Shown here: piece after piece, positions 10,333 through 38,069 of the stretch
Layout: each line of letters opens with the position of its first letter
How positions within the stretch are numbered: position 1 is the stretch's first letter
Assembly: GCA_014650475.1 (NCBI GenBank)
Contig: BMVA01000003.1
Span: forward strand, 62,001 to 126,000
Origin: Streptomyces albogriseolus
GTDB lineage: Bacteria; Actinomycetota; Actinomycetes; Streptomycetales; Streptomycetaceae
Direction of reading: 5' to 3'
DNA: 64,000 bases
The notes under the pieces: model-generated
Database searches by the model: none
Told to the model about the DNA's origin: nothing
Seen by the model: the letters and a program-made list of their open reading frames with translations, nothing else
Program-made: the position numbers and the translations under genes

Positions 10333-10384
10333 CCCGCTCCCCCGGCGGCCCGGCTCCGGGCCGCCCGACCCCTACGGAGGACCC

Positions 10385-21032: not shown

Positions 21033-21095
21033 CCCGGCCCCGGCCCGACCGCTCCCACCAGGCCGTTGTCACACCCCCCTGCGACACTCGCGTAC

Positions 21096-22812: not shown

Positions 22813-23490
22813 TCAGGCCGGCGGTGTTCCGCGCTCGGCGAGGCCGCTCTCGTAGGCGACGATGACCAGCTGGGCGCGGTCGCGGGCGTTCAGCTTGGAC
22901 AGCAGGCTGCTCACGTGGGTCTTCACCGTGGGCAGACTGATCACCAGGTGGCCGGCGATCTCCTGGTTCGACAGACCCTTGGCGATCAGCACGAGCACCT
23001 CCTGCTCGCGCCGGGTGAGTCCGACGAGCCGGGGGGCCGGCCGGGCGGCCGTGTCCCGGTGGGAGAAGTTCGCGATGACCCGGCGCGTCACCGAGGGGGC
23101 CAGCACGCCCTCGCCGGTGGCGATGACGCGGATGCCCGCGACCAGGTCGTCCGGCGAGGCGTCCTTCAGCATGAAGCCGCTCGCACCCGCCTGAAGGGCC
23201 GGGTAGACGTACTCGTCCATGTCGAACATCGTGAGGGCCAGCACCCGCACGCCCGCCGTCGACGCGTCGGAGCAGATCTCGCGGGTGGCGGCGATCCCGT
23301 CCATGACGGGCATCCGCAGGTCCATCAGGACGACGTCCGGCGTCAGTTCGCGGGCGAGCGCGACGGCCTCGGCGCCGTCACCCGCCTCCCCCACCGTCTC
23401 CATGCCGGGAGTCGAGTCGATGAGGACCCGGAAGCTCCCGCGCAGCAGCGCCTGGTCGTCCGCGATCAGGACCCGGACCGCCTCGGCCAT
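22813..23490 (-). CDS. NarL/LuxR-family response regulator of the lasso cluster
   Basis: A canonical 225-residue response regulator. The receiver keeps D11, D12, the phospho-acceptor D57 (PDVVLMDLRMP) and a Lys in FMLKDAS. The C-terminus is a LuxR HTH (LTRREQEVLVLIAKGLSNQEIAGHLVISLPTVKTHVSSLLSKL). It is the last minus-strand gene after the CapA gene (76-base gap) and could be the distal gene of the lasso operon. No kinase adjoins it; the HisKA_3 kinase at the other end of the cluster (32571-33704) is the best partner candidate. Confidence 0.88.
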   Translation of the reverse strand: MAEAVRVLIADDQALLRGSFRVLIDSTPGMETVGEAGDGAEAVALARELTPDVVLMDLRMPVMDGIAATREICSDASTAGVRVLALTMFDMDEYVYPALQAGASGFMLKDASPDDLVAGIRVIATGEGVLAPSVTRRVIANFSHRDTAARPAPRLVGLTRREQEVLVLIAKGLSNQEIAGHLVISLPTVKTHVSSLLSKLNARDRAQLVIVAYESGLAERGTPPA

Positions 23491-23566
23491 TCCGCATCCC
23501 TCGTACCTCGGGTCGCCGCCGTGCCCCGGCGGTCCGACACCCCGTCAGCATGTGTCCCCGGTCACC

Positions 23567-24913
23567 CTACCGGCCGGGGCGGCGGCCGCCGCCGGATTCC
23601 GCGGCCACCAGTTCCCCCGTCCCGGCGTCCCCGACGGTGACGGTGACGCCGTAGGGCTCCGCGAGCCGCGCGAAGTCGGTGAGGATCTCCTTGGCCTCGA
23701 CCGGACCGGCCGCCCGGGGCCGGCCCCGCCGGTGCACCGGCTGCCCGAAGCCCAGGTCGACCGGGTGCAGCCGGGCGCCGGTGAAGACCCCGTCGTCGAA
23801 GGTGAGCACCGGCACGAGCGACTGCCAGTACCGGCGGTGCGGGACGAACATCCGCCGGCCGTGGGCGGTGATCCGCTCGAAGTACCGGCCGGGCGTGAGG
23901 GCCTCGTCCGTCCCGGCCCGCGCGTAGTCCTCGGCGGGGACGTGGTCGGCCAGTTCGATCTGGCTGACGATGTTGCCCAGGCTGTGGAAGATGGGCCTGC
24001 CCCGGTGCAGTTCCACACCGCGCAGGATGTGCGGGCCGTGTCCGACCACGGCGTCGGCGCCCGCGTCGATCACCGCGCGGGCGAAGTCCCGCAGGAACTC
24101 GGCGGGCGTCTCGGGCGTCGGGCCGGGTTCGTGGGAGTGGACGCTGACCAGGACCAGGTCCGCGCGGCGGCGCGCCTCGGCCACCCAGCGGGCGATGTCG
24201 TGGACGTCCCGCGGGTCGCAGGCGGTGGTCAGGCCCGGGGTGTCCGCGGTCTCGAAGCGGGTGCCGAACAGCGCGAGCCGGCCGGGTCCGGGCATGGCGG
24301 GGTCGAACCCGAGCAGGGTGCGCGCCTCGGCCCGCCGGGACCGCAGCCCGGTCGCGCCGTCGATCTCCCGCAACACCTCCATCTGCGCGGACGTCACCCG
24401 GAGGGTCACGCCGTGCCGCAGCGGGCTGAGTCCCGGCCGGCCCGGCAGGTCCGGGGACGCGGCGGCCGCCTCCTGCCCGTCCCGGAAGGTGGCGCTGCAC
24501 GCGATCAGCGCCAGACTGCCGGCCGGCCGGTCCACGTAGACCGGGCGCCGGGCCGCGGTCAGGTCGGCGCCGATCCCCGCGAACGGCACCCCCTTGGCGC
24601 GCAGCAGGTCCACGGTGCCGAGGACGCCCTCCGGGCCCAGGTCGAGGGCGTGGTTGTTGGCGCAGCCCAGCACCGTCAGACCCATCGCCGTCACGTCGTC
24701 GAGGACGGCGGGGTCCGCGATCAGGCATCCTCCGCTGGCCGCGTCGGGCGCGGGATGGCCGCGTCCGGTGGCGGGCGCGACCTCCAGGTTGGTGAAGGCG
24801 AAGTCGGCGGCGTGCAGGACCTCGCCCAGCCGGCCGGCGTCGGCGCCGGAGGTGAGCAGCGCGCCCCGCGTCACCATGCAGTCCCCCGTCAGCGCCACGG
24901 TCAGGCGGCTCAT
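23567..24913 (-). CDS. mslH: CapA-family protein, probable lasso-peptide C-terminal epimerase (MslH-like)
   Basis: A 448-residue protein with the CapA/PgsA calcineurin-like fold: LTGDCMVTRGAL, NLEVAPATGRGHPAP, CANNHALDLGPEGVLGTVDLLRAKGVPFAGIG, SVHSHEPG, and VVGHGPHILRGVELHRGRPIFHSLGN. Metal-binding Asp, Asn and His residues of the fold are present. In capsule clusters such proteins act on poly-gamma-glutamate, but no cap genes are here. In the MS-271 cluster, MslH of this family epimerises the C-terminal Trp of the lasso precursor. The same position and the C-terminal Trp of this precursor make that role likely. ATG 24913 overlaps the dsbA-like gene by four bases. Confidence 0.85.
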   Translation of the reverse strand: MSRLTVALTGDCMVTRGALLTSGADAGRLGEVLHAADFAFTNLEVAPATGRGHPAPDAASGGCLIADPAVLDDVTAMGLTVLGCANNHALDLGPEGVLGTVDLLRAKGVPFAGIGADLTAARRPVYVDRPAGSLALIACSATFRDGQEAAAASPDLPGRPGLSPLRHGVTLRVTSAQMEVLREIDGATGLRSRRAEARTLLGFDPAMPGPGRLALFGTRFETADTPGLTTACDPRDVHDIARWVAEARRRADLVLVSVHSHEPGPTPETPAEFLRDFARAVIDAGADAVVGHGPHILRGVELHRGRPIFHSLGNIVSQIELADHVPAEDYARAGTDEALTPGRYFERITAHGRRMFVPHRRYWQSLVPVLTFDDGVFTGARLHPVDLGFGQPVHRRGRPRAAGPVEAKEILTDFARLAEPYGVTVTVGDAGTGELVAAESGGGRRPGR

Positions 24914-25635
24914 GAAAGGCTCTCCTCAACCGCCCGGACGAACGCTTCCGCCCGGTCGGGTCCGGAGACCTCCACGCGCTTGCCGTCCACCTTCACGGTC
25001 GGGGTGAGGGCCACCCCGCGGGAGGCGGCCACGTCGGACACGTACGTCACCCAGGGCCGGTACGTGCCGTCGCGGACGCACCGCTCGAAGGACGCGCCGG
25101 TGATGCCGACGTCCCGGCCGAGCGCGACCAGGCGGTCGGTGTCGAGGCCGGGGCCCTGCTCCGGCGGCTGCTCGTCGAAGAGCGCCGCCGTGTAGGGCTC
25201 GAACGTGTCCTGGTCCGCGGCGCAGGCGGCGGCGGACGCGGCCCGGGTGGAGTAGCCGGCGGGGGCGCTCCGGTCGTCGAGGAAGGCGACCGGGTGATGG
25301 ACGACGCGCACCTCGCCGCGTTCCCGCATCTTCTCCAGTTCGGGGGCGAGGGCCTTCTCGGTGATGCGGCACTCGGGGCAGAGGTAGTCGAGGTAGAGGT
25401 CCACGCGGACCGGGCCCTCGGACGTGACGAGCCCGGCCCGGTCGGCGGCCACCCCGGCGGGGACCTCCTCGGGTGCCTCGCCGGGTTCGGTGTCGGTGGC
25501 CCGGACGAGGCCGGCGCCGATGAGCGCGGCGCCGAGCACCGTGACCACCGCCGCGAGCGACACCAGCAGGGTGCGGCGGCGCCGGCGGCGCTGGTGCACC
25601 ATCTCCCGGACCTGGGCGTCCGTCGACGACTGCAT
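24910..25635 (-). CDS. DsbA-like thiol:disulfide oxidoreductase of the lasso cluster
   Basis: A 241-residue membrane-anchored thioredoxin-fold protein. A basic N-terminus (HQRRRRRRT) precedes one transmembrane segment (residues 22-45), and the outside domain has the active site C86-P-E-C89 in YLDYLCPECRITEKALAPEL, with a cis-Pro loop in ALTPTVKVDG. It is expected to oxidise the four-Cys core peptide to its two-disulfide (class I) form outside the membrane. ATG 25635 has GGAG eight bases upstream. It lies between the MauE-like and CapA genes with essentially no spacing. Confidence 0.88.
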   Translation of the reverse strand: MQSSTDAQVREMVHQRRRRRRTLLVSLAAVVTVLGAALIGAGLVRATDTEPGEAPEEVPAGVAADRAGLVTSEGPVRVDLYLDYLCPECRITEKALAPELEKMRERGEVRVVHHPVAFLDDRSAPAGYSTRAASAAACAADQDTFEPYTAALFDEQPPEQGPGLDTDRLVALGRDVGITGASFERCVRDGTYRPWVTYVSDVAASRGVALTPTVKVDGKRVEVSGPDRAEAFVRAVEESLS

Positions 25636-25637
25636 GT

Positions 25638-26111
25638 CTATCGCTCCTTCGTCTCCAGGACCCAGCGGTCCAGGGCGTAGCGGGTTCGCGGACGGGTGAT
25701 CAGGAAAGCGGCGGCGCCGAGGAAGGCGAGGTCGCGCGCGATGTCGATGACGTAGCCCCGTTCCGCCCCGCCGCTGAGGGTGCCGCCGCTGCTGAAGCAG
25801 CCGCAGTCGATGGACAGGCCGCGCGCCCACACCGAGGCGATGGCCGCGATGTACGTGACCATCAGCAGGGCGGTGACGGCCGCCACGGCGCGGGTGGCGA
25901 GCCCGGCGAGAAGCAGCAGGGCGAGCGCCAGCTCGACGAACGCCACCGCGGCGCCGACGAGTCGGGCGCTGTCCTCGGGGACGAGCTGGTAGAGGGCGAC
26001 CGTACGGCCGGCCTCCGTGAGGTCCCGTACCTTCACCAGGCCCGCGTAGCCCAGGACCGCCGCGAGGACGATCCGGGCCGCGGTGCCCGCCCATGCCCGC
26101 ACGATCGTCAC
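25638..26111 (-). CDS. MauE/DoxX-like membrane protein of the lasso cluster
   Basis: A 157-residue four-helix membrane protein of the MauE family. It keeps the Cys motif DCGCFSSGG in the loop before the last segment, which in MauE/DsbB-like proteins passes electrons from the partner oxidoreductase to the quinone pool. Its position directly before the DsbA-like gene suggests that it reoxidises that protein. ATG 26111 follows the ABC permease stop by 13 bases; its stop codon ends 2 bases before the next ORF begins. Confidence 0.85.
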   Translation of the reverse strand: MTIVRAWAGTAARIVLAAVLGYAGLVKVRDLTEAGRTVALYQLVPEDSARLVGAAVAFVELALALLLLAGLATRAVAAVTALLMVTYIAAIASVWARGLSIDCGCFSSGGTLSGGAERGYVIDIARDLAFLGAAAFLITRPRTRYALDRWVLETKER

Positions 26112-26124
26112 GGCCGGCCCCCCT

Positions 26125-26994
26125 TCACCGCGACCGGGAGAACCGGTGGGTGGCCAGGCCCAGTACGGCGGCGGTGAGGGCGGCCAGCACCCCCAGCTCC
26201 GCGTACACGGGCGGGTTCCAGTCGCCGAGCATCAGCCGGGTCTGCTCCGAGGTGAGGACGTCGGGGCCGGGCAGCGTCCGGCGCACGGCGTCGACGCCGT
26301 AGGTCAGCGGGTTCAGTTTGACGACGGTGTCGAGCCAGCCCGGCAGTCCGTTGGGCGGGAACATCGCGCCGGAGAAGAACATCAGCGGCATGAGGCTGAG
26401 GTTCACCACGATCTGGAACGTGTCGACCTGCCGGATGGTGACCGCGGCGAGCAGTCCGAACGAGGTGAACAGCAGGGAGATCAGCAGCAGTTCGACGAGG
26501 ACGATCAGCAGCATCGGCGTGTACCGGACGCCCGCGATGCCTCCGACCGCGAGCAGGGCGAGGCCGTAGACGGCACCCGTGGTGGCTCCGCCGAGCGCGA
26601 GGCCGAGGACGATGCTCGACCGTGGGAACGGGGAGACGAGCATCTGGCGCAGCATGCCGAGCCGGCGGTCCCAGACGAGCGAGATGCCCACGGCGATGGC
26701 CGGGGCCTGCACGGACATCACCAGGGCGCCCGGGAACAGGTAGGCCCGGTAGTCGTTCAGCTGGGCCTTGCCGAGGGTGGACGACGCCGCCTCCAGGCCC
26801 GTGCCCAGCACGACCAGGAACAGCAGCGGCGTGACCAGGCCCATGACGAGGCGCAGGGGGTTGTGCCGCAGGCGTGTCATCTCGCGCCGCCACAGCAGCG
26901 CGTAGGGCCGCACGGTGTGCCACGTCCGCCCCTCGGACGGGTGCGCCGCCGGTTTCGTGCCGGTGACGTCCGGCGGGATGTCGGTCCGGGTCAT
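26125..26994 (-). CDS. ABC-2 type permease of the lasso cluster (exporter)
   Basis: A 289-residue membrane protein with six hydrophobic segments and the ABC-2 landmarks LVWDRRLGMLRQMLVSPFPRSSIVLG and MFPPNGLPGWLDTVVKLNPLTYGVDAVR. With the coupled ATPase gene it should export the mature peptide and give immunity, the usual role of the D genes in lasso clusters. ATG 26994 overlaps the ATPase stop codon by four bases. Confidence 0.9.
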   Translation of the reverse strand: MTRTDIPPDVTGTKPAAHPSEGRTWHTVRPYALLWRREMTRLRHNPLRLVMGLVTPLLFLVVLGTGLEAASSTLGKAQLNDYRAYLFPGALVMSVQAPAIAVGISLVWDRRLGMLRQMLVSPFPRSSIVLGLALGGATTGAVYGLALLAVGGIAGVRYTPMLLIVLVELLLISLLFTSFGLLAAVTIRQVDTFQIVVNLSLMPLMFFSGAMFPPNGLPGWLDTVVKLNPLTYGVDAVRRTLPGPDVLTSEQTRLMLGDWNPPVYAELGVLAALTAAVLGLATHRFSRSR

Positions 26995-27956
26995 CGCAGT
27001 CCCTCCCCGAGGCTGTCGAGCGCGCGGGCGTCGGACCCGCTGTCCCTGATCGCGGTCCCGGTGTGGTGCAGGTAGACGTCGTCGAGCGTGGGCGGGGTGA
27101 CGGTCACCGACCGCACGGTCAGGCCCAGTCCGGTGCACAGGCGGGGCACCATGGAGGCGCCGTTCTGCACCCTCAGCCGCAGCCCGCCGGGGGTGGTCTC
27201 GGCCGTCAGTCCGAAGCGGTCGGACAGCAGGTCGACGGCCAGCCCGTCGTCCTCGGTGCGCAGGTCGACGACGTCGGCCCCGATGACGGACTTCAGCTCC
27301 GCGGGGGAGCCCTCCGTGACCAGCTTGCCGCGGTCGAAGATCGCGATGCGGTCGCAGTGCTCGGCCTCCTCCAGCTGGTGCGTGGTGAAGAAGACCGTGA
27401 TGCCCTGTTCCTCGCGGAGCCGGTCCAGGTGGTGCCAGACGGCCGCGCGGGTCTGCGTGTCGAGGCCGGTGGTCGGCTCGTCGAGGAAGAGCACGCGGGG
27501 GGAGCCGAGCAGGCCGCGGGCGATCTCCAGGCGTCTGCGCAGGCCGGTGGAGAAGTGCCGGACGGGGGTCCTGTCGCGTCCCGTCAGCTCCATCATGTCG
27601 AGCATCGCGGCGACCGCGGCGCGCGCCCCGGCACGGCCCAGACCGCACAGGTCGGCCTGGAAGCGGAGGTTCTCCGCGGCCGTGAGCTCCAGGTCGAGCG
27701 TCGACTCCTGGAAGACGATGCCGATCCTGCGCCGTACCTCGGCGGCGTGCGTGGTGACGTCGAAGCCGGCCACCTCCGCGCGGCCCGCCGTGGGCCTGAG
27801 CAGCGTGGTGAGCATGCTGATGGTGGTGGTCTTGCCGGCGCCGTTCGGTCCCAGGAACCCGAAGGTGGCGCCCTCGGGGACGGTCAGGTGGAGGCCGTTC
27901 ACGGCCGGCGTGGTGTCGTAGTACGCGTAGAGGCCCTCGGCCCGGATCGCCGTCAT
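26991..27956 (-). CDS. ABC transporter ATP-binding protein of the lasso cluster
   Basis: A 321-residue DrrA-type ATPase. Walker A is [10 protein letters not shown], the signature is FSTGLRRRLEIARGL (the usual SGG is STG), Walker B is [12 protein letters not shown], and the C-terminal TPPTLDDVYLHHTG is typical of drug exporters. ATG 27956 overlaps the B2 gene stop by four bases, so it is coupled to peptide maturation. Unlike the McjD type found in many proteobacterial lasso clusters, this exporter is a two-gene ATPase/permease pair. Confidence 0.92.
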   Translation of the reverse strand: MTAIRAEGLYAYYDTTPAVNGLHLTVPEGATFGFLGPNGAGKTTTISMLTTLLRPTAGRAEVAGFDVTTHAAEVRRRIGIVFQESTLDLELTAAENLRFQADLCGLGRAGARAAVAAMLDMMELTGRDRTPVRHFSTGLRRRLEIARGLLGSPRVLFLDEPTTGLDTQTRAAVWHHLDRLREEQGITVFFTTHQLEEAEHCDRIAIFDRGKLVTEGSPAELKSVIGADVVDLRTEDDGLAVDLLSDRFGLTAETTPGGLRLRVQNGASMVPRLCTGLGLTVRSVTVTPPTLDDVYLHHTGTAIRDSGSDARALDSLGEGLR

Positions 27957-28378
27957 GAGCCGCTCCCGGGACGGCGCACGGCCAGCACGGTGCGGAACAC
28001 CCCGACCTCCCCCGGCTCGTCGACCGGGCGGCCGTCGGCCTCGACCCAGGCGTGCGCGGCGAAGGGCTGCACCCGGAAGCCGGTGCACCAGTCGGCCCAC
28101 CGGCCCCGGACGCGGCACAGCAGCACGGTGGCGACGGACCGCTGGAGGCAGCCGAGGCCCGCGCAGCGGGTGCTGACCGAGACGACGGACCGCCGGGCCC
28201 GTGCCACCTCGGCGTACCCGGCGGGCCGGGAGCCCTTGCTCAGGACGCGCAGCACCCGGTGCAGCCGGGCCGGGGGCAGCCGGACCAGCAGGCGGGCGGC
28301 GCCGGCCGCGCACCTCGGGGCGATCTGCCGGTGCAGCGGGAGGCGTGTGGCCTGTTCCGCGACGGCGGGCGTGGTCAC
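27953..28378 (-). CDS. mslB2: lasso peptide leader protease B2
   Basis: A 141-residue transglutaminase-fold Cys protease that removes the leader before ring closure. The conserved motif CLQRSVATVLLCRVRG holds the nucleophile C77; H109 in PFAAHAWVEADG and D120 complete the probable Cys-His-Asp triad. The split from the PqqD-like recognition domain, encoded by the preceding gene, is the normal actinobacterial arrangement. GTG 28378 overlaps the B1 stop codon. The symbol is borrowed from the MS-271 cluster. Confidence 0.94.
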   Translation of the reverse strand: MTTPAVAEQATRLPLHRQIAPRCAAGAARLLVRLPPARLHRVLRVLSKGSRPAGYAEVARARRSVVSVSTRCAGLGCLQRSVATVLLCRVRGRWADWCTGFRVQPFAAHAWVEADGRPVDEPGEVGVFRTVLAVRRPGSGS

Positions 28379-28638
28379 TGCGCCACCTCCACGAGGTCGG
28401 CCTCGCTCAGCGCGCGGACGAGGGCCAGCACGTCCTGGTGCACCCGCTCCTCGCTGACCGGGGCGGACTCCGACAGGCTCGCGGCGGCCGTGGCGGGGGT
28501 GTCGCCGTCGAGCAGCTTGCGCAGGATCGCGGAGCCGGAGGCGTTCAGCTGGTAGTAGCGGCCGCGGCGGCCGTCGAGCAGGACCGCCCCGGAATCGACG
28601 GGCGTCAGGGTGACGTCGCGGGCAAGACTCAGTTTCAT
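28375..28638 (-). CDS. mslB1: lasso peptide PqqD-like leader-recognition protein B1
   Basis: An 87-residue RiPP recognition element. The winged-helix PqqD pattern is clear: LARDVTLTPVDSGAVLLDGRRGRYYQLNASGSAILRKLLDG, then a helical C-terminus. It binds the precursor leader, most likely at its YxxPxL motif, and delivers it to the B2 protease. ATG 28638 overlaps the cyclase stop codon by four bases (ATGA). Confidence 0.94.
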   Translation of the reverse strand: MKLSLARDVTLTPVDSGAVLLDGRRGRYYQLNASGSAILRKLLDGDTPATAAASLSESAPVSEERVHQDVLALVRALSEADLVEVAQ

Positions 28639-30446
28639 CGGCTCTCTCCGGTGTCCTGGGGGTGCGCCCGCAGCCAGCTTTCGCACGCCACCGTGGTCTG
28701 GATCGGCTGGAGGTGATGGGACATCGGCCCGGGGTTGAGCACCGCGGACCGGAAGGCGTCCGGGTCGACGAGGCCGAGCCGGGCCAGGAGCGAGTCCTCG
28801 CAGAGGTCCAGGATCCGGTCCCGGTTGCGTTCGATGCCCCGGAACGTCTCGGCGCTGAACTCGCCCTTGTCGCGGCGGGCGAGGAAGTCGTCGGGCACCA
28901 CGCCCCGCACGGCGGTGGTCAGCAGCGGCTTGAACCGTCCGGCGGCCAGGCGCTCGTCGATCCGGGTGGCGAGGGCCGCCTCGAGGACCCGGTCGTCGAG
29001 GAACGGCGCCTCCCAGACCAGGCCGGTGCCGGCCACGGCGGTGTTGACCTGCCGGACGGTGTTCCCCTCGAACACGAGGGAGGACAGCGCCTGGTGCCGG
29101 GCCCGGTCGGCGTCCAGCGGTTCCGGGGTCCGTTCGGCCGCCGTGGTCAGCAGGTCCCGCACGGCGGCCACCGCGTCCGGGGTGGCCCAGGCGGGCATGC
29201 GCGGCGCGAACACCCAGCCGAAGTCCGGCTCGTTGACCGGCGGGGGCGGGTCGGTGATCCGCCCGGCGACCTCGGTCAGGTTCCGGGCGAACGACGAACG
29301 GTCCGCGAGCTGCCGCAGGGTGCTCCGCCAGGGCCAGCGGTTGGCCAGCCGGTAGCGGTTCACCAGCCGCAGGCCGTCGGCCGGGCGGATCCGGGCGAGG
29401 GACCAGGCACAGGCGGGCATCCGGCCGAAGAGTTCGTCCCCGCCGAACCCGGACAGGTGCAGGGTCGCGCCCTCGGCGGTGGCCCGCCCGGCGAGGTCCC
29501 GGATGTGTGCGAGGCCGGAGGCCCATGTCGAGGGGCCCTCGGGAGCCGCGTTGACGGTGTCGGCGGTGTACCCGATGTCGAACAGGTTGGCGGCGCGGTC
29601 CGCGGCGAGCATGTGGTGGCGGGCGTGCGGAAGATGCGCGGCGGCCTTGCGGGCCCACGCGGAGTCCTCGTTGGCCTCGTCCAGCGGCATGACGTGATAA
29701 GTGACCAGGTCGGCGCCGGCCGCGTCGGCGAGAAAGCACAGGGTGGTGGAGTCGAGCCCGCCGGAGAGGTCCGCGCTGATCGTGCCGTGCGGGTCCACGC
29801 GGGTCGCGAGGGCGTCGGTGAGGGCGGAGCGGACGGCCCCGGCCCCCTCCTCCAGCGAAAGGGCCGCCTCGGGCAGTTCCCACCACCGGACGCTGCGGGC
29901 CCGGCCGTCGGCGCCGAGTTCCAGCCAGTGGCCGGTGGGCAGCGCGTCCACGCCGCGGCGTACCGGGCGCAGCGAGAGCGGCCAGGGGGCACCGCCGGGC
30001 GCCAGCAGCCGGGCGGCCAGCAGGGTCTCGTCGACGCCCGCCCCGGTGAGGCGCAGCAACGGGTCCACGGCGCTCGCGGCGACCGTCACCCCGCCGACCC
30101 GGGCGGTGAAGACCTGCCGTACCCCGGCCACGGAGCCCTGGAGGCGGACCGCGCCGTCCAGGGAGGCCGCGAGGTGGAAGACCCCGGGCAGCCGGGACGC
30201 GACCCGGTCGACGTCGTGCAGCGAGCGCATCCGGCCGAGCGCGGAAGCCGTTCCCGTGTCGTGGGGCCGGGTGTGTCCGAACACCGCCATGCGGCGGGTG
30301 CCGGCCTCGGTCACCGTCGCCTCGTCCTCGGCCCAGTCCCCCACGATCCAGGGCCGTCCCGACGCGTGGTCGATCCGCTTCGCCGCCCCCACCCGGTCCG
30401 CCAGCGCGGCACCGGCGGGACAGTCCGGAAGCACTGTGAATTCCAT
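28635..30446 (-). CDS. mslC: lasso peptide macrolactam synthetase C (asparagine-synthetase-like)
   Basis: A 603-residue cyclase that adenylates the ring-forming side chain (here Asp9 of the core) and joins it to the N-terminal amine after leader removal. The ATP pyrophosphatase motif SGGLDS is at residues 228-233, followed by LSGFGGDELFGR. The N-terminal glutaminase-like domain lacks the catalytic Cys2, as expected for lasso cyclases. ATG 30446 is preceded by GGGGGGAG and GAGG. It follows the precursor gene after a 61-base gap that holds a strong hairpin. Confidence 0.94.
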   Translation of the reverse strand: MEFTVLPDCPAGAALADRVGAAKRIDHASGRPWIVGDWAEDEATVTEAGTRRMAVFGHTRPHDTGTASALGRMRSLHDVDRVASRLPGVFHLAASLDGAVRLQGSVAGVRQVFTARVGGVTVAASAVDPLLRLTGAGVDETLLAARLLAPGGAPWPLSLRPVRRGVDALPTGHWLELGADGRARSVRWWELPEAALSLEEGAGAVRSALTDALATRVDPHGTISADLSGGLDSTTLCFLADAAGADLVTYHVMPLDEANEDSAWARKAAAHLPHARHHMLAADRAANLFDIGYTADTVNAAPEGPSTWASGLAHIRDLAGRATAEGATLHLSGFGGDELFGRMPACAWSLARIRPADGLRLVNRYRLANRWPWRSTLRQLADRSSFARNLTEVAGRITDPPPPVNEPDFGWVFAPRMPAWATPDAVAAVRDLLTTAAERTPEPLDADRARHQALSSLVFEGNTVRQVNTAVAGTGLVWEAPFLDDRVLEAALATRIDERLAAGRFKPLLTTAVRGVVPDDFLARRDKGEFSAETFRGIERNRDRILDLCEDSLLARLGLVDPDAFRSAVLNPGPMSHHLQPIQTTVACESWLRAHPQDTGESR

Positions 30447-30467
30447 GTCGCCTCACTCCCCCCGGGC

Positions 30468-30500
30468 GGTGCCGGTGTGCCGCGGGGGCACACCGGCACC
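30468..30500 (-). terminator. hairpin between lasso precursor and cyclase genes
   Basis: A perfect 14-bp stem (30468-30481 with 30487-30500) with a five-base loop, starting seven bases after the precursor stop codon. It is probably a partial terminator or 3' stabiliser that raises precursor mRNA over the downstream enzyme genes. Confidence 0.75.
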
Positions 30501-30507
30501 GGTGCGG

Positions 30508-30636
30508 TCACCAGAAGCAGACGATGGCGTAACCGCAGCCGGCGAAGTCGTTGCAGCTCCCGATGCCGAGGCACTTGGTGAGCTCGTCGAAGTCGCCGAT
30601 CTCCTGCAGGGCGGGCGGCTCGTAGATCGCGGTCAT
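30508..30636 (-). CDS. mslA: class I lasso peptide precursor, siamycin-type core
   Basis: A 42-residue precursor. The leader (residues 1-21) begins MTAIYEPPALQEIG and ends DELTK. It contains YxxPxL for PqqD binding and Thr at position -2. The 21-residue core starts CLGIGSCNDF and ends in Phe20-Trp21, with Cys at 1, 7, 13 and 19 and Asp at 9. This predicts a Cys1-Asp9 macrolactam and disulfides 1-13 and 7-19. Core Ile4 and Ile17 match siamycin II as I recall it; siamycin I/MS-271 has Val4 and RP 71955 has Val17. ATG 30636 has GGGAGG four bases upstream. Confidence 0.96.
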   Translation of the reverse strand: MTAIYEPPALQEIGDFDELTKCLGIGSCNDFAGCGYAIVCFW

Positions 30637-30696
30637 GGTTCCTCCCGTGGGTCGAACGGCCCGGGCCGACCTTTTCGGCGCCGTGACCTGTCCGGG

Positions 30697-30735
30697 AACC
30701 TACGAGCGGTCATGTCCCACGGGCATGGGGCACAG
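30697..30735 (-). promoter_or_regulatory. candidate promoter and activator site of the lasso operon
   Basis: On the minus strand TAGGTT (30697-30702) is a plausible -10, about 61 bases before the precursor ATG. No TTGACA-like -35 lies at the proper distance. That position is instead overlapped by an imperfect inverted repeat, CATGTCCCAC (30711-30720) and CATGGGGCACAG (30724-30735), which may bind an activator. Confidence 0.4.
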
Positions 30736-30752
30736 GACCCAGGTGCGTCCCG

Positions 30753-31505
30753 TCACCCGTCCCACGAGCGGTGCCGGAGGTAGCCGGCGGTCAGGGCGGC
30801 CGCGGTCCACGCGAGCAGCACGACCAGGCCGGTGAGGGCGTCGCCGGAGTCGACGGTGAGCATCTGGGCCCCGGCCCGGTCGGGGAACCAGCGCGCCACC
30901 TCCTTCGTCGCCCCGATGACGGACAGGACCTGGGAGCCGACCAGCACCAGCGGCAGCAGCACGGCCAGCGGGAGGACGGCGCTGCGGGCGGCGGCCGCCA
31001 CCCCGACGGCGAGCAGGCTCATGAGGGTCAGGTAGACGACCGCGCCGGCCAGGGCACGCGGGACGCCGTCGGCGTCGAGCGCCGACCCGTGGGAGCCCAG
31101 GGCGAGTTGCGTGACCAGGTACGACACGACCGTGACCGGCAGGGCGACGGCCAGGGCCGCGGCGGCGGTGACGGCCGCCTTGGCCAGGTAGAACCGGCCG
31201 CGCCGGGGCACCGCGAGCAGCGAGACCCGCATCATGCCCGAGGTGTACTCGCCGGACATCGTCAGCACCCCGAACACGATCAGGGCGAGCTGGCCGTAGA
31301 GGATGCCGTCCAGACCGGCCTGCTCGGGCGTGAAGTCGGAGCGCAGCCCGGGGTTGCCGGACTCGATCGCGCCCTTGGCGGACCAGCCGCCGAGCGCGGC
31401 GACGAACACGCTGACGAGGACGAAGAGCAGCAGCGCGGCGCACGTGGCACGCACCGCCCGCAGTTTGGTGAACTCCGCCCGCACGGCCGCGAGGGTCTCA
31501 GACAT
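30753..31505 (-). CDS. ABC-2 type permease, second transporter of the cluster
   Basis: A 250-residue membrane protein with six hydrophobic segments and the pattern typical of actinobacterial ABC-2 permeases that begin AEFTKLRAVRAT and contain TMSGEYTSGMMRVSLLAVPRRGRFYLAK. It overlaps the upstream ATPase gene by eight bases. This transporter lies upstream of the precursor promoter. By analogy with antibiotic clusters it may provide immunity to a lipid II-binding peptide, but that is inference. Confidence 0.88.
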   Translation of the reverse strand: MSETLAAVRAEFTKLRAVRATCAALLLFVLVSVFVAALGGWSAKGAIESGNPGLRSDFTPEQAGLDGILYGQLALIVFGVLTMSGEYTSGMMRVSLLAVPRRGRFYLAKAAVTAAAALAVALPVTVVSYLVTQLALGSHGSALDADGVPRALAGAVVYLTLMSLLAVGVAAAARSAVLPLAVLLPLVLVGSQVLSVIGATKEVARWFPDRAGAQMLTVDSGDALTGLVVLLAWTAAALTAGYLRHRSWDG

Positions 31506-32400
31506 GCGTGGGATCTCCTCCGTCGTCGACGAGCTTGAGGAAGGTCTCCTCCAGCGAGCCCGTGTGGGTGCTCAGTTCCTCGACCGGGACGCCCGCCGCC
31601 GCGGCGATCCGGTTCACCTCGCCCGCGGGCAGGCCGTCCACCTCCAGGCCGCCGTCCGCGGCCCGCCGCACCGCTGTGGCGCCCTTCGCCTGGAACTCCT
31701 GTGCGGCGCGCAGCGGTTCGGGGGTCCGGACCCGCACAAACGTCCGGCCGTGGCGTCCGATGAACTCCCGCACGCTGGTCTCGGCGAGCAGCCGGCCCCG
31801 GCTGATCACGATCAGTTCGTCGGCGACCTGCGCCATCTCGGCCATCAGGTGGCTGGAGACGAGGACGGTGCGGCCCTCGGCGGCCTGCGCGCGCAGCAGC
31901 TCGCGCAGCCACCGGATGCCCTCGGCGTCGAGCCCGTTGACCGGCTCGTCGAGCACCAGGACCGGGGGGTCGCCGAGCAGGGCGGCCGCCAGGCCGAGCC
32001 GCTGTCCCATGCCCAGGGAGAAGGTGCCGACCCGTTTGCGGGCGGCTCCCGTGAGACCGACCGCGTCGAGCACCTCGTCCACCCGCCGGCGGGGGATCCG
32101 GTTGCTGCGCGCCAGCCACGACAGGTGGCCGACGGCGGTCATGCCCCGGTGCGGGGCCGACGTCTCCAGGAGCGCGCCGACGTGCCGGAGGGGGTACGTC
32201 AGGTCGTGGTAGGCGCGTCCGCCGACGATGGCCACGCCGCTGTCGGGGCGGGTCAGGCCGAGCATCATCCGCATCGTCGTGGACTTCCCGGCGCCGTTGG
32301 GCCCGAGGAAGCCGGTGACGACCCCCGGCCGCACCGTGAAGGAGAGGTCGTCGACGACGGTGTTGTGCCCGTACCGCTTGGTCAGTCTCTCGGCAAGCAT
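31498..32400 (-). CDS. ABC transporter ATP-binding protein, second transporter
   Basis: A 300-residue ATPase. Walker A is GPNGAGKST, the signature is FSLGMGQRLGLAAALLG, and Walker B is VLVLDEPVNGLD, the form common in actinobacterial bacitracin-resistance-like (BcrA) transporters. ATG 32400 starts MLAERLTKRYG; GTG 32403 directly before it is equally possible and neither has a strong Shine-Dalgarno sequence. It lies between the permease gene and the sensor kinase gene on the same strand. Confidence 0.9.
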   Translation of the reverse strand: MLAERLTKRYGHNTVVDDLSFTVRPGVVTGFLGPNGAGKSTTMRMMLGLTRPDSGVAIVGGRAYHDLTYPLRHVGALLETSAPHRGMTAVGHLSWLARSNRIPRRRVDEVLDAVGLTGAARKRVGTFSLGMGQRLGLAAALLGDPPVLVLDEPVNGLDAEGIRWLRELLRAQAAEGRTVLVSSHLMAEMAQVADELIVISRGRLLAETSVREFIGRHGRTFVRVRTPEPLRAAQEFQAKGATAVRRAADGGLEVDGLPAGEVNRIAAAAGVPVEELSTHTGSLEETFLKLVDDGGDPTHV

Positions 32401-32510
32401 CACGGGTCGAGTCTCGCGGGGCGCACCCCGGGGCCGCATCGGTCCGCGGTCGGGAACGGGACGCGGCGCCGCGCGGGCGTCCCTCATACCCGAGGATGAG
32501 CCGGGGCTGT

Positions 32511-32591
32511 CAGGCCCTGGAACGGCAGGGTGGCCGTCAGGCCCTGGAACGGCAGGGCTGCCCTCAGTCCCTAGAACGGCAGGGTGGCCGT
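32511..32591. repeat. three tandem 27-bp repeats over the kinase stop codon
   Basis: Units at 32511-32537, 32538-32564 and 32565-32591 are nearly identical. The unit at 32565 includes the end of the histidine kinase frame; its TAG stop (32571-32573) takes the place of a CAG codon in the other two units. Read in the kinase frame the units encode the nine-residue motif TATLPFQGL. Confidence 0.85.
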
Positions 32592-33704
32592 CACCCGGAA
32601 GCCGCCGCCGGGCCGGGGGCCCGCGCTCAGGGTGCCGCCGTGCGCGGCGGTCCGCTCCTTCATGCCGACCAGCCCCATCCCGCCGCCGGGCAGCGTGGCC
32701 CGGCGTCCGGGGCCGGGGCCGTCGTCGGTCACGTCCACGGTCAGCACGCCGTCCCGCGCCGTGACGTCCACCCGGCAGCCGGTCGGCGCGGCGTGCTTGA
32801 CCACGTTGGTGAGCGCCTCCTGGACGATGCGGAACGCCGCCAGCGCGACGCCCTCCGGCGGCTCCTGGTCGTACCGGGTGCGCAGTTCGACCTGGACGCC
32901 TGCCGCCTCGGCGGTCCCGAGCAGCGCGGGCAGGTCCGCCAGGCCGCGGGCGGGCCGCAGGTCCCCGGCCTCGCTCCGGTCCTGGCCGCGGAGCACGGTC
33001 AGGGTGGCGCGCATGTCGCGCAGCGCCCGGCGGCTGACGTCCTCGATGACCGCCAGGGCCTCCTTCGCCTCCTCCGGGCGGGTGGCCACGACGTGGTTGG
33101 CGATGGAGGCCTTGACGGCGATGAGTCCCACGCTGTGGGTGACGACGTCGTGGATGTCGCGGGCGATGCGCAGGCGTTCCTCGGTCTTGGCCTGCTCGGC
33201 GGCGTGCTCGATGGCGCGCCGGGTACTGAGTCCGCGCTCCCTGACCGCCGAGCCCGCCGCCCAGGTCGCGCCGAGCACGAGGAGGCCGAACACGGCCTGC
33301 ACGGCGGTGCTGCCGCCCTGGTAGGACTGCCCGCCCGACAGCGTGAGCAGGGCGGCGACCGCGGCGCACAGCCCGGCGACGGCGACGGCCGACACCCCGG
33401 GGTCGCGCCGCCGTGTGGTGGCCACCGTGTAGACGGCGTAGGAGGCGGCCAGGAACGGGGCGGGGCCGAGACCGGCGGCCAGCGCCCCGCACGCCGCGGC
33501 CAGGACGAGGACAAAGACCGGGACCGGCCACAACCGCCGTACGGCGAGCGGGAGTCCGGCGCACAGGGACAGCAGCCACAGTGTGCCGCCGCCCGTCCCT
33601 CCGTCGGCAACCGGCCGCAGCAGCGACACCTGCGGCAGGAGCGTGAAGGCGCAGGCCGCCGCCCCGTCCAGCACGATCGCACGTCTCCGGGACCCCTCAC
33701 CCAT
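32571..33704 (-). CDS. sensor histidine kinase (HisKA_3/NarX type)
   Basis: A 377-residue membrane kinase. About five hydrophobic segments occupy residues 10-155, with no obvious extracellular sensor domain. The phospho-acceptor is H185 in RIARDIHDVVTHSVGLIAVKA, followed by the HATPase N-box FRIVQEALTNVVKHA and the G-boxes VTDDGPGPG and GGGMGLVGMKERTAAHGG. HisKA_3 kinases pair with NarL-type regulators. The adjoining divergent regulator lacks its Asp, so the regulator at 22813-23490 is the likelier partner. ATG 33704 is the first good start. The gene ends inside a tandem repeat. Confidence 0.9.
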   Translation of the reverse strand: MGEGSRRRAIVLDGAAACAFTLLPQVSLLRPVADGGTGGGTLWLLSLCAGLPLAVRRLWPVPVFVLVLAAACGALAAGLGPAPFLAASYAVYTVATTRRRDPGVSAVAVAGLCAAVAALLTLSGGQSYQGGSTAVQAVFGLLVLGATWAAGSAVRERGLSTRRAIEHAAEQAKTEERLRIARDIHDVVTHSVGLIAVKASIANHVVATRPEEAKEALAVIEDVSRRALRDMRATLTVLRGQDRSEAGDLRPARGLADLPALLGTAEAAGVQVELRTRYDQEPPEGVALAAFRIVQEALTNVVKHAAPTGCRVDVTARDGVLTVDVTDDGPGPGRRATLPGGGMGLVGMKERTAAHGGTLSAGPRPGGGFRVTATLPF

Positions 33705-34193
33705 GCCCTCGAACGTAGGCGGTCGATCCGCGGCCCGTCCAACGGGCGGTGCGCCGAAGATCCGTGTGTCGCGCCGCGTGGTGACCGTTTCGGTCAGGGT
33801 CGTCCGCCGCGCACCACGGCCGTCACGGGAGTGCCGTCCCGCGGGCCGCGCGCCCGGAGCCGCCCCCACCACCACCGACGCCGGAAAAGCGGCGTTCGGC
33901 GGGCTCCGGCCGATACTCACCCCTCAGACGGAATAGCTTTGTTCACTTCGGAGACGAACTTGCGTTCCCCTCAAGCGCGTCCACATACTCGGCAACAGGA
34001 GCGCCCTGCACGCTCCGGCACACCACCATGCCTGCGCAGACAGGCCATGGACCACGGGGGCACGGAACAACCACAACCGAGTACGTCATGCCCGCAGTCG
34101 GCCGCATACGGACCGGCCCTTCGTCGGGTGTGCCCCCGGGGACCATCCGCCGCCGTCCGCACCACGCCGACGCATTTCTGGGGGATGTACGAG
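33705..34193. other. divergent intergenic region, nothing recognised
   Basis: The 489 bp between the divergent kinase and response-regulator genes. I see no convincing gene, RNA or strong palindrome. It should hold both promoters. Confidence 0.4.
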
Positions 34194-34895
34194 ATGACCG
34201 TCAACCTGTTCGTGGTCAGCGACAACCCGGTGTCCCTCGCCGGGCTGGAAGCGATTGTCGACCAGGATGAGGAGTGCGCTCTCGTCGGACGCGCCACGGA
34301 CGACTCCGACGACCTCCGATGTCTGTCGGCGCTGGCCGGCACCGCCCTCCACCCCGACGTCGTCGTCCTGAGCGAGCCGTCCTCCAGAAGAACCGTCCGC
34401 GCACGCGTCCGGCACATCGCCTCCGCCTTCCCCGACGAGGCGTCCCGGCCGCACACGATCGTGGTGGCGCAGAACGACGACGACGAGATGATCGTCTCGG
34501 CCCTCCGCGCCGGCGTCAACGGCTACCTCTCACGCCTCGGTTCGGCCGACGAACTGCTCCGTTCCCTCAAGGTCGTCGCCCAGGGCGGAGCCGCCTTCTG
34601 CCCCAGCGTCGCGGCCCGCATGAGCCGTTACTTCTCCGCCATGCGGGGCCTGCACGACAGCGCCGGGTTCCCGGGGCTCACCAGCCGCGAACTGGAGATA
34701 CTGGAACTCCTCGCCGGCGGCATGGGCAACCGGCAGATCGCCCGCCGGCTCTTCCTGGCCGAGAAGACCGTCCGCAACTACGTCTCACGCATCTTCGCCA
34801 AACTCGAGGTGCACGACCGGGCGACGGCGGTGGTGATGGCCCGCGACGCGGGCATCGGCGAGCCCGCGGGGGAACTGGTCCCGAACACCGCGTGA
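34194..34895 (+). CDS. atypical NarL/LuxR-type response regulator without phospho-acceptor Asp
   Basis: A 233-residue regulator with a receiver-like N-terminus and a clear LuxR HTH at the C-terminus (LTSRELEILELLAGGMGNRQIARRLFLAEKTVRNYVSRIFAKL). Where a normal receiver has the Asp of PDVVLMD, this one has Ser60 (PDVVVLSEP). The N-terminal acidic pair is reduced to one Asp (D10) and the conserved Lys is replaced by Arg. It should therefore not respond by normal phosphorylation. ATG 34194 has GGGGG about eight bases upstream; ATG 34185 is in frame. It is divergent from the sensor kinase. Confidence 0.85.
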   Translation: MTVNLFVVSDNPVSLAGLEAIVDQDEECALVGRATDDSDDLRCLSALAGTALHPDVVVLSEPSSRRTVRARVRHIASAFPDEASRPHTIVVAQNDDDEMIVSALRAGVNGYLSRLGSADELLRSLKVVAQGGAAFCPSVAARMSRYFSAMRGLHDSAGFPGLTSRELEILELLAGGMGNRQIARRLFLAEKTVRNYVSRIFAKLEVHDRATAVVMARDAGIGEPAGELVPNTA

Positions 34896-34988: not shown

Positions 34989-35065
34989 TGGAGCCGCCTT
35001 CGGGATTCGAACCCGAGACCTACGCATTACGAGTGCGTTGCTCTGGCCATCTGAGCTAAGGCGGC
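34989..35065 (-). tRNA. tRNA-Thr (anticodon CGU)
   Basis: A full cloverleaf on the minus strand. The acceptor arm GCCGCCT pairs with AGGCGGC; the D arm is in AGCTCAGATGGCCAGAGCA; the anticodon loop is CTCGTAA (anticodon CGT, codon ACG); the T arm has GGTTCGAATCC. The 3' CCA is encoded (34989-34991). It lies at the border between the lasso cluster and the conserved holB-tmk-topA region. Confidence 0.95.
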
Positions 35066-36863: not shown

Positions 36864-38069
36864 TCAGCCCGCCCTGAGCGCCATCGTCATCGCCTCCACC
36901 GCCAGCAGCGGCGCCACGTTGCGGTCCAGCGCCTCGCCGCAGGCCGCGATCGCCTCGATGCGGCGCAGCGTGGACTCGGGGGTGCTGCTGCGGGCCAGAC
37001 GCTCCAGCGCGTCCTCGGCGTCGGTGTTGGCCAGGGCGATGCGGGAGCCGAGCTGCAGGGCGAGGACGTCGCGGTAGAAGCTGGTGAGGTCGGCCAGGGC
37101 GACGTCGAGGCTGTCGCGCTGGGTGCGCGTCCTGCGCCGCTTCTGCATCTCCTCCAGGTCCTTGACCGCACCCGCCGTGCCGCGCGGGAGGCGGCCGCCC
37201 TGGGCCGCGCCCAGCGCCGCCTTCAGGTCCTCGGTCTCCTTGCCGTCCCTCTCCTCGGCGAGCTGCTTGGCGTCCTCGGCGGCCGCGTCCACCAGCTCCT
37301 GAGCGGCCCTCAGCGCGCCGCCGACGTCCTCGACGCGCAGCGGCAGCTTCAGCACGGCGGCGCGGCGGGCGCGCGCTGCCGGGTCGGTGGCGAGGCGGCG
37401 CGCCCGATCGACGTGGCCCTGGGTGGCGCGGGCGACGGCGGCGGCCACGTCCGGCTCGATGCCCTCGCGGCGGACGAGCATGTCGGCGACGGCCTCCACC
37501 GACGGGGTGCTCAGGACGAGGTGGCGGCAGCGGGAGCGGATCGTCGGCAGGACGTCCTCGACGGACGGGGCGCACAGCAGCCACACCGTGCGCGGGGCCG
37601 GCTCCTCGACGGCTTTGAGGACGGCGTTGGCGGACTTCTCGTTGAGCCGCTCGGCGTCCTCGACGAGGATCACCTGCCAGCGGCCGTTCGCCGGGGCGGT
37701 GAACGACTTGCGGACGGTGTCGCGCATGGCCTCGACGAGGATCTGCGAGCCGACGGCGGCCACCGTGGAGACGTCGGCGTGGGTGCCGACGAGCGCGGTG
37801 TGGCAGCCGTCGCAGAAACCGCAGCCGGGGGCGCCGCCGAGGGCCCGGTCGGGGCTGACGCACTGGAGGGCGGCGGCGAAGGCGCGCGCCGCCTGGTTGC
37901 GGCCCGCGCCGGGCGGGCCCGTGAACAGCCACGCGTGCGTCATGCGGGACGCCTCGGGCGGGGGCACGTCGCTCGCCGCCGCGGTGACGAACGCGTCGGC
38001 GTCCCGGGCGGCGGCGGCGAGCTGCTCGCTCACCCGCTCCTGCCCGACCAGGTCGTCCCACACGGTCAT
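36864..38069 (-). CDS. holB: DNA polymerase III subunit delta'
   Basis: Clamp-loader subunit of 401 residues. The N-terminus MTVWDDLVGQERVSEQLAAAA is the family signature, with a degenerate P-loop (GPPGAGRNQAARAFAAAL). The zinc module Cys residues are in CVSPDRALGGAPGCGFCDGCHTAL, and the sensor-1 region is LVEDAERLNEKSANAVLKAVEEPAPRTVWLL. The actinobacterial delta' lacks ATPase activity, consistent with GRN instead of GKT. It lies downstream of tmk, the normal tmk-holB order. Confidence 0.95.
   Translation of the reverse strand: MTVWDDLVGQERVSEQLAAAARDADAFVTAAASDVPPPEASRMTHAWLFTGPPGAGRNQAARAFAAALQCVSPDRALGGAPGCGFCDGCHTALVGTHADVSTVAAVGSQILVEAMRDTVRKSFTAPANGRWQVILVEDAERLNEKSANAVLKAVEEPAPRTVWLLCAPSVEDVLPTIRSRCRHLVLSTPSVEAVADMLVRREGIEPDVAAAVARATQGHVDRARRLATDPAARARRAAVLKLPLRVEDVGGALRAAQELVDAAAEDAKQLAEERDGKETEDLKAALGAAQGGRLPRGTAGAVKDLEEMQKRRRTRTQRDSLDVALADLTSFYRDVLALQLGSRIALANTDAEDALERLARSSTPESTLRRIEAIAACGEALDRNVAPLLAVEAMTMALRAG

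What the first reader, a model, noticed from the sequence alone, without database searches (positions are those of the whole stretch)
22813..34895. Complete siamycin-type lasso-peptide cluster with an easily missed 42-codon precursor gene
The minus-strand frame 30508-30636 encodes a leader with YxxPxL and Thr at -2, then a 21-residue core beginning CLGIGSCNDF and ending Phe-Trp with Cys 1/7/13/19 and Asp9. Behind it lie cyclase, B1, B2, exporter, redox and CapA genes, nearly all overlapping. The core equals siamycin II as I recall it (Ile4, Ile17). Known facts: siamycins bind lipid II and block HIV fusion. Inference: this strain makes siamycin II or a stereoisomer of it.
Basis: partly seen in the sequence, partly recalled or inferred. 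Interest (0 to 1): 0.9.

Follow-up and report, generated by a model that had tools for sequence, protein, structure and literature searches.

The report
Siamycin II lasso-peptide cluster with immunity module
This Streptomyces DNA holds an intact, already-described type of gene cluster for the knotted antibiotic peptide siamycin II, and comparison with relatives suggests that four of its genes form a separable sensing-and-immunity unit that survives in strains that no longer make the peptide.

Summary
Window 30508-30636 (minus strand) encodes a 42-residue precursor: a leader with YEPPAL and Thr at -2, then CLGIGSCNDFAGCGYAIVCFW, the siamycin II sequence. An open 14-gene class I lasso cluster surrounds it (22813-34895). 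The CapA-like gene scores 866 bits against the MslH tryptophan-epimerase model (cut-off 700) and keeps eight of eight key residues, so the likely product is [D-Trp21]siamycin II. It is not new: a siamycin II cluster was reported in 2020 from Streptomyces sp. F-7 (PMC7168211). New here, by comparison: histidine kinase, upstream ABC transporter (ABC1) and regulator R2 sit together without a full-length precursor, cyclase, protease or epimerase gene in 16 of 31 distinct loci. These orphans lie among producers on a tree (9 changes; at least 5 forced). The second ABC transporter, at 80% identity or more, was found only in genomes with the precursor (8 of 378). Best reading: kinase, ABC1 and R2 are a portable immunity module, repeatedly kept after production is lost. 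The census was seeded with ABC1, 3 of 16 orphan modules look damaged, and no immunity test exists. A conserved inverted repeat precedes the precursor gene and a conserved hairpin follows it.

The parts
30508..30636 (-). precursor gene A, 42 aa; core CLGIGSCNDFAGCGYAIVCFW (siamycin II sequence)
   Evidence: leader model NF033521; PDB 1rpb/8itg matches
28635..30446 (-). cyclase C, 603 aa (Asn synthase fold)
   Evidence: Pfam PF00733 141.6 bits; 70-96% identical to the cyclases of 7 other siamycin-type clusters
28375..28638 (-). B1, leader-binding PqqD-type protein, 87 aa
   Evidence: NF033530 92 bits, cut-off 70
27953..28378 (-). B2, leader peptidase, 141 aa
   Evidence: NF033537 109.5 bits, cut-off 33
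26991..27956 (-). ABC2 ATPase, exporter half (inferred)
   Evidence: Pfam ABC_tran 105 bits
26125..26994 (-). ABC2 permease, exporter half (inferred); relatives of 80% or more identity found only in genomes with the precursor
   Evidence: 8 of 378 genomes, next best 55%
25638..26111 (-). E, MauE/DoxX-family protein, disulfide formation (inferred)
   Evidence: PF07291 86.4 bits
24910..25635 (-). F, thioredoxin/DsbA-like protein, disulfide formation (inferred)
   Evidence: PF13462 74.9 bits
23567..24913 (-). H, MslH-type C-terminal tryptophan epimerase, 448 aa
   Evidence: NF038314 866.4 bits, cut-off 700; PDB 8gq9 E 1.6e-209; 8 of 8 catalytic/metal residues kept
22813..23490 (-). R2, NarL/LuxR-type response regulator with normal phospho-Asp motif; part of the proposed immunity module
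   Evidence: found in 16 of 16 orphan loci
30753..31505 (-). ABC1 permease; proposed immunity transporter
   Evidence: PF12730; 14 of 392 genomes at 66% or more identity, 6 of them without a precursor match
31498..32403 (-). ABC1 ATPase; proposed immunity transporter
   Evidence: PF00005; synteny
32571..33704 (-). histidine kinase (HisKA_3, DUF7134 domain)
   Evidence: synteny
34194..34895 (+). R1, LuxR-type regulator with a pseudo-receiver (no Asp at the phosphorylation place)
30713..30732 (.). inverted repeat TGTCCCA-n6-TGGGGCA upstream of the precursor gene, candidate R2 operator (inference)
   Evidence: only match in 64 kb, 0 in 100 shuffles; present in 6 of 8 clusters
30697..30702 (-). 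TAGGTT, candidate -10 box of the precursor promoter (inference)
   Evidence: sequence, block in the alignment
30663..30681 (-). short palindrome GCCGA..TCGGC in the presumed 5' UTR of the precursor
   Evidence: alignments
30468..30500 (-). hairpin just after the precursor stop codon, 12 base pairs shared by 8 of 8 clusters

Best explanation
A complete, open class I (siamycin-type) lasso-peptide cluster that should make siamycin II with a C-terminal D-tryptophan. B1 binds the leader (YxxPxL), H epimerises Trp21 on the precursor, B2 cuts after Lys(-1), C closes the Cys1-Asp9 ring, E and F make Cys1-Cys13 and Cys7-Cys19, and the downstream ABC pair (ABC2) exports the peptide. These steps are taken from work on MS-271 and humidimycin and inferred here by homology. 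The kinase, the upstream ABC pair (ABC1) and R2 form a separable module that senses the peptide and protects the cell; this is inferred here from its presence in loci without the biosynthetic genes. R1, which lacks the phospho-Asp, is a regulator tied to production.
For: Precursor and gene calls. Gene order conserved in 8 of 8 Streptomyces genomes with a (near) full-length precursor match, window included, and in 12 named loci, L108 being cut by its contig end. MslH-type epimerase over its cut-off in 8 of 392 genomes, the same 8, with eight of eight tested residues kept in each of the 8. dN/dS against two near relatives 0.14-0.35 in the six genes that gave a value. Immunity module: ABC1 permease relatives (66% or more) in 14 of 392 genomes, 6 without a precursor match; all 6 keep kinase, ABC1 and R2 next to each other, damaged in G117; 12 of 24 named loci are such orphans, L121 without an ATPase hit. 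ABC2 permease at 80% or more only in the 8 producers. R1 found in 14 of 15 producers (the 15th is cut by the contig end); in orphans only scraps of 29 residues (L122) and 16 residues (L070) were hit.
Against: No expression, mass or activity data for this strain. No lasso-specific NCBIfam cyclase model passes its cut-off. The orphan set was seeded with ABC1, so ABC1's presence in it is by construction; only the company of kinase and R2 is independent. 3 of 16 orphan modules look damaged (L103, L121, L124). Four outgroup orphans (three Actinomadura, L122) show no scrap of the precursor, cyclase or epimerase in the DNA fetched, so the module may serve another signal. Some rows of the tree are long (L122, L119, L125, L021) and 8 of its 30 inner branches are open.
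Confidence: 0.9

Rival explanations
1. The cluster makes siamycin II with L-Trp21, as the compound was first described, and H is not active on it.
For: [quoted passage not shown]
Against: H passes the MslH equivalog cut-off, keeps 8 of 8 key residues, the very similar humidimycin was shown to have D-Trp (PMC7168211, section 2.3), and a PDB entry of a siamycin-type peptide is written with a terminal D-Trp (6ak0).
Confidence: 0.07
2. The cluster is intact but silent, or the strain has lost production through a change outside the cluster.
For: No expression data; relatives of R1, R2 and the kinase change the yield of MS-271 (PMC7168211, citing Feng et al.).
Against: The frames are open and dN/dS is low. 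Silence under laboratory conditions cannot be excluded.
Confidence: 0.3
3. Kinase-ABC1-R2 is a general envelope-stress or peptide-detoxification system that the siamycin cluster recruited; its orphans have nothing to do with siamycins.
For: Orphans reach Actinomadura and Streptacidiphilus with different gene orders; on the tree, rooted on the sviceucin-like pair, the earliest branches are orphans.
Against: Streptomyces orphans are interleaved with producers (9 changes, at least 5 forced), and some carry scars of the lost cluster: an H piece in L105; ABC2 and H pieces plus the inverted repeat in L106/L107; short precursor and H scraps in L124.
Confidence: 0.35
4. The roles are swapped: the downstream ABC2 pair is the immunity pump and ABC1 the exporter.
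For: Both are ABC-2 type transporters; neither was assayed here.
Against: ABC2 permease relatives of 80% or more were found only in producers, while ABC1 stays with the regulators where no peptide can be made.
Confidence: 0.15

Closest known systems
Siamycin II cluster of Streptomyces sp. F-7 (FKJH01000010.1; PMC7168211 section 2.4)
   Same: Same predicted product by name. HumA is reported as 95% identical and 100% similar to the F-7 precursor (WP_107308646.1, Table 1); HumA versus the window precursor also differs at 2 of 42, so the two may be identical (inference).
MS-271 / siamycin I cluster (msl)
   Same: Same kinds of genes including epimerase H, kinase, two response regulators and two ABC pairs (PMC7168211).
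   Different: Core has Val4 instead of Ile4; over the 41 residues aligned MslA (8itg) differs at T2S, I4V, A9M, I13V, I25V.
Aborycin / RP 71955 / siamycin III (abo, gul)
   Same: Nearest relatives of the window cluster (S. griseoincarnatus, S. althioticus, S. werraensis) encode this core.
   Different: Val17 instead of Ile17: one residue of 42 (G148).
Humidimycin (hum)
   Same: Leader identical but for residue 2; same type of gene set, D-Trp shown.
   Different: Asp8 instead of Asn8 in the core.
Sviceucin-like clusters (L022, L023)
   Same: Four Cys and Asp9 in the core, relatives of ABC1, kinase and R2. The likeness to sviceucin is from recall.
   Different: 20-residue core ending Trp-Cys-Ile, no hit to H, E or F in the DNA held.

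Membership tests
class I (siamycin-type) lasso peptide cluster | precursor with YxxPxL leader, Thr at -2 | tested here: met
class I (siamycin-type) lasso peptide cluster | core with Cys1, Cys7, Cys13, Cys19 and Asp9 | tested here: met
class I (siamycin-type) lasso peptide cluster | split B (B1, B2) and cyclase C genes next to the precursor | tested here: met
   C meets Pfam Asn_synthase but no lasso-specific NCBIfam cyclase cut-off
class I (siamycin-type) lasso peptide cluster | macrolactam ring, threaded tail and two disulfides in the product | not testable with these tools
   needs MS and NMR of the product
siamycin II producer | core sequence CLGIGSCNDFAGCGYAIVCFW | tested here: met
   That these letters are siamycin II is recalled; the neighbours are sourced: humidimycin from PMC7168211, aborycin from PMC6409603
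siamycin II producer | peptide detected in culture | not testable with these tools
   no culture or MS
MslH peptide epimerase | score above NF038314 cut-off | tested here: met
   866.4 against 700 bits
MslH peptide epimerase | residues Asp11, Glu44, Asn87, His88, Asp91, His259, His261, His295 | tested here: met
   residue list from PMC10406935 passages
MslH peptide epimerase | epimerisation of Trp21 in vitro | not testable with these tools
   needs enzyme assay
antibiotic immunity module (two-component system plus ABC transporter) | kinase, regulator and ABC genes stay together when biosynthesis is absent | tested here: met
   16 of 16 orphan loci have hits to kinase (part or whole), permease and R2 close together; L121 has no ATPase hit. 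The set was seeded with the permease
antibiotic immunity module (two-component system plus ABC transporter) | confers resistance to the peptide | not testable with these tools
   needs deletion and sensitivity assay

The most novel reading that the evidence does not exclude
The siamycin cluster is two evolutionary units: a production unit (precursor to H, plus R1) and a portable, older immunity unit (kinase, ABC1, R2) that senses siamycin-type lasso peptides and is repeatedly kept when production is lost. About as many of the actinomycete loci found hold the immunity unit alone (16) as hold both (15). This would name a self-resistance determinant of lipid II-binding siamycins, which none of the listings of my nine paper searches showed, and suggests producer / resistant non-producer dynamics in soil.
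Probability: 0.5. Interest if true: 0.6.

Novelty: new member of a known kind. Interest (0 to 1): 0.35.

Why it matters
The peptide and its cluster type are known, so the main finding is a further instance, useful as a source of [D-Trp21]siamycin II and as a hint that the all-L description of siamycin II needs checking. What could matter more is the split into a production half and an immunity half: it makes the self-resistance question for siamycins directly testable by two gene deletions, and it gives a marker for resistant non-producers. R1's pseudo-receiver, seen in 14 of 14 clusters where R1 was found, is a clue that production may be switched without phosphorylation of R1.

Tried and rejected
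A named-genome search with the precursor itself was not possible (query too short); the census was seeded with an alignment of 14 ABC1 permeases instead, which biases it to loci with ABC1, and it rests on two short peptide patterns. The reverse control with the ABC2 permease used a draw of 378, not the 392, and lists only 20 of its genomes without a match, so it is not shown which orphan genomes were in it. In one search hits of 40 bits or less were dropped, so short scraps there would be missed; searches had no such filter. A first helix register for the hairpin was wrong (50% of cells paired) and was replaced by the right one (100%; slid versions 25-58%). Covariation there is thin: 10 of 12 pairs never vary, 1 changes on both sides (2 sequences), 1 on one side; 17 of 500 shuffles reach the covariation score. 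The hairpin energies were not set against shuffles, and other lasso loci (L023, L025, L026) also fold strongly after the precursor, so an RNA role is not proved and a DNA role of the palindrome is not excluded. The inverted repeat was sought in each cluster: 6 of 8 have it, L021 and L020 do not in full; of the six orphan loci only L106 (the same place as L070) has it; the other named orphans were not scanned for it. The idea that the tRNA-Thr next to the window cluster (34989-35065) is a general integration site was dropped: of 14 other producer loci only L112 and L113 have it. The MslH-like gene of G193 (L068) was followed as a possible second lasso type; no hit to the window's precursor, cyclase, B1 or B2 and no candidate precursor by motif lies in the 19 kb fetched. 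Weak precursor hits in G051, G229, G105, G079 are other lasso-like precursors, not siamycin-type. Literature: 9 searches, several with capped lists (for example 15 of 74 papers, 12 of 30), showed no listed paper whose title or abstract start concerns siamycin self-resistance or orphan kinase-ABC-R2 loci. PMC7168211 mentions one degenerate cluster (siamycin N2, Streptomyces sp. NL15-2K), and its Table 1 lists a NL15-2K protein as the closest homolog of the hum kinase, which fits the orphan pattern. Only open-licence papers are searchable there. Of PMC13352647, PMC6784204, PMC10406935, PMC11872507 and PMC10608281 only found passages were seen.
Full report
1. Is it there? Yes. The minus-strand frame 30508-30636 gives MTAIYEPPALQEIGDFDELTK / CLGIGSCNDFAGCGYAIVCFW. 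The lasso leader model NF033521 scores 32.3 bits (cut-off 19). The window lies in an 8.07-Mb genome in 66 contigs; the nearest named relatives of the module are those of Streptomyces griseoincarnatus, S. werraensis and S. althioticus.

2. The gene set. From precursor to R2 on the minus strand: A, C (28635-30446), B1 (28375-28638), B2 (27953-28378), ABC2 ATPase (26991-27956), ABC2 permease (26125-26994), E MauE/DoxX (25638-26111), F thioredoxin-like (24910-25635), H (23567-24913), R2 (22813-23490). Gaps are 61, -4, -4, -4, -4, 13, 2, -4 and 76 bp. Upstream lie the ABC1 permease (30753-31505), ABC1 ATPase (31498-32403) and histidine kinase (32571-33704) on the minus strand and R1 (34194-34895) on the plus strand. 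The 14 frames hold no internal stop (checked). C meets Pfam Asn_synthase, but no lasso-specific NCBIfam cyclase model reaches its cut-off.

3. What it makes. In PMC7168211 (outline, introduction, results and figure/table section seen) the humidimycin precursor differs from ours at residue 2 and core residue 8 only. Aborycin, CLGIGSCNDFAGCGYAVVCFW, is given in PMC6409603 (outline and results section seen). Expected [M+H]+ is 2176.87 for one ring and two disulfides; the same sum gives 2162.859 for aborycin and 2177.859 for humidimycin, against 2162.8575 and 2177.8588 in the papers.

4. The tryptophan. H scores 866.4 bits against NF038314 (cut-off 700) and aligns over 436 residues with crystallised MslH (8gq9, E 1.6e-209). 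The eight residues that PMC10406935 (passages) reports as catalytic or metal-binding are kept in the window protein and in 7 other siamycin-type loci. H passes its cut-off in 8 of 392 Streptomyces genomes, the same 8 that carry the (near) full-length precursor, and in 1 of 396 of a phylum-wide draw, the window's own genome. D-Trp21 is therefore expected; it was shown for humidimycin, and PDB 6ak0 is written with a terminal D-Trp.

5. Already known. PMC7168211 section 2.4 reports a siamycin II cluster in Streptomyces sp. F-7. The reported 95% identity and 100% similarity of HumA to the F-7 precursor (Table 1) equals what HumA shows to the window precursor (40 of 42; both changes conservative), so the two precursors may be identical. 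This is inference; the F-7 record was not available.

6. Relatives. Of 392 Streptomyces genomes 14 had a precursor hit at E 0.001 or better, 8 of them over residues 1-42 or 2-42 (window's genome included). All 8 keep the 14 genes in order (G148 in L028). Among 15 distinct producers (window, L016, L021 and 12 named) the cores are: siamycin II 1 (window), aborycin 4 (L109, L112, L113, L130), siamycin I type 6 (L016, L114, L115, L116, L120, L123), specialicin type 1 (L117, S. specialis), and three cores for which I know no compound name: Gln8 (L108), Glu8 (L111), Thr8/Val11 (L021). Compound names other than humidimycin and aborycin are partly from recall; the letters of siamycins N1 and N2 in PMC7168211 were not visible.

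7. Two units. ABC1 permease relatives fall into two groups with a clear gap: 14 of 392 genomes at 66% or more, the next by score at 47%. Eight are the producers. The other six (G146, G350, G296, G117, G285, G114) are not among the 14 genomes with a precursor hit. In all six, kinase, ABC1 ATPase, ABC1 permease and R2 lie side by side, and there is no hit over 40 bits to A, C, B1, B2, E or F in the 16-18 kb fetched. G285 keeps a C-terminal piece of H; G146 keeps pieces of ABC2 and H, the inverted repeat and a 16-residue scrap of R1; in G117 kinase and ATPase are both cut short. A scan of the named genome collection with an alignment of 14 ABC1 permeases gave 24 loci: 12 producers and 12 orphans. 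Orphans include Streptomyces, Streptacidiphilus, three Actinomadura and two unnamed actinomycete assemblies; in Actinomadura and Streptacidiphilus the four genes stand in other orders. R2 and at least part of the kinase are present in 16 of 16 orphans; the ATPase in 15 of 16 (not L121). 13 of 16 have all four genes aligned over 70% of their length or more without a stop; L103, L121 and L124 do not (the L124 permease match has a length that is not a multiple of three).

8. Order of events. A tree of ABC1 ATPase, ABC1 permease and R2 (33 rows, 773 columns) mixes the two kinds: the label orphan needs 9 changes with the outgroup counted (8 to 10 in bootstraps; at least 5 forced by well-supported branches; 66 of 500 shuffles as low), producer 8 (at least 4 forced); without the outgroup the two states need 8. 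Rooted on the sviceucin-like pair, the outermost branches (three Actinomadura, then L122) are orphans. L122, L119, L125 and L021 are long rows and their place is unsure. Counts of changes cannot tell gain from loss; the scars in G285, G146/S. hirsutus and L124 point to loss in at least three. dN/dS in four orphan-orphan pairs is 0.08 to 0.49 over the module genes, against 0.14 to 0.35 in two window-producer pairs.

9. Control. ABC2 permease relatives at 80% or more occur in 8 of 378 genomes, exactly the eight producers; the next best is 55%. So ABC2 travels with biosynthesis and ABC1 with the regulators. The orphan census was seeded with ABC1, and the draw is not the same as that; both limits remain.

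10. Regulators. R2 has the normal phosphorylation motif (PDVVLMDL; PHVVLMDL in L117) in 15 of 15 producers. R1 was found in 14 of 15 (L108's contig begins inside the cluster) and has no Asp at that place in 14 of 14. In orphans only scraps of R1 were hit, 29 residues in L122 and 16 in L070. PMC7168211, citing Feng et al. (not read), says that extra MslR2 and MslG raise MS-271 yield and MslR1 lowers it. Sviceucin and siamycin I are reported to inhibit the histidine kinases FsrC and VanS (PMC11872507, passages), so a kinase that meets siamycin is plausible.

11. Control elements. TGYCCCA-n6-TGGGRCA has one match in the 64-kb window, none in 100 shuffles. It lies at 30713-30732, that is 77 to 96 bases upstream of the first base of the precursor's ATG (30636), and is followed by a TAG-TT box seen in most of the aligned clusters. 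It is present in 6 of 8 clusters. A 12-bp hairpin follows the precursor stop codon in 8 of 8, with 100% of cells paired; the 65 bases after the stop fold at -35.8 to -40.1 kcal/mol in the 8, not compared with shuffles. The likely role, by analogy and untested, is to protect the short precursor message or to limit read-through into C.

12. Verdict. The finding is correct and ordinary in kind. The split of the cluster into a production unit and a portable immunity unit is the part worth a bench test.

Noticed in passing
L068 (G193 C3:192000-211000), gene at about 9797-11092: MslH-like protein, 50% identical to the window's H, with 8 of 8 key residues, in a locus without hits to the window's lasso genes; neighbours include a TauD dioxygenase and an ABC transporter. 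Possible peptide epimerase for another substrate.
   Followed up: partly
L022 6482-6604 and L023 8377-8499: Four-Cys precursors with cores CLPSGDCPDFLGCGRAIWCI and CLPSGDCPDFLGCGRALWCI, 20 residues, no H, E or F hit in the DNA held: sviceucin-like class I lasso peptides (likeness from recall).
   Followed up: partly
L108, L111, L021: Siamycin-type cores with Gln8, Glu8 and Thr8/Val11 that I cannot match to a named compound.
   Followed up: no
window 34989-35065: tRNA-Thr (cgt) next to R1; the same tRNA beside R1 in L112 and L113 but in none of the other 12 producer loci scanned.
   Followed up: yes
L107/L106, L105, L124: Decayed siamycin clusters: scraps of ABC2 and H, of H, and of precursor and H, between ABC1 and R2.
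   Followed up: partly
window 21066-22790 and 36864-38069: Flanking genes that look like a family A DNA polymerase and a DNA polymerase III delta-prime-like ATPase (by eye from the translations, no family search).
   Followed up: no
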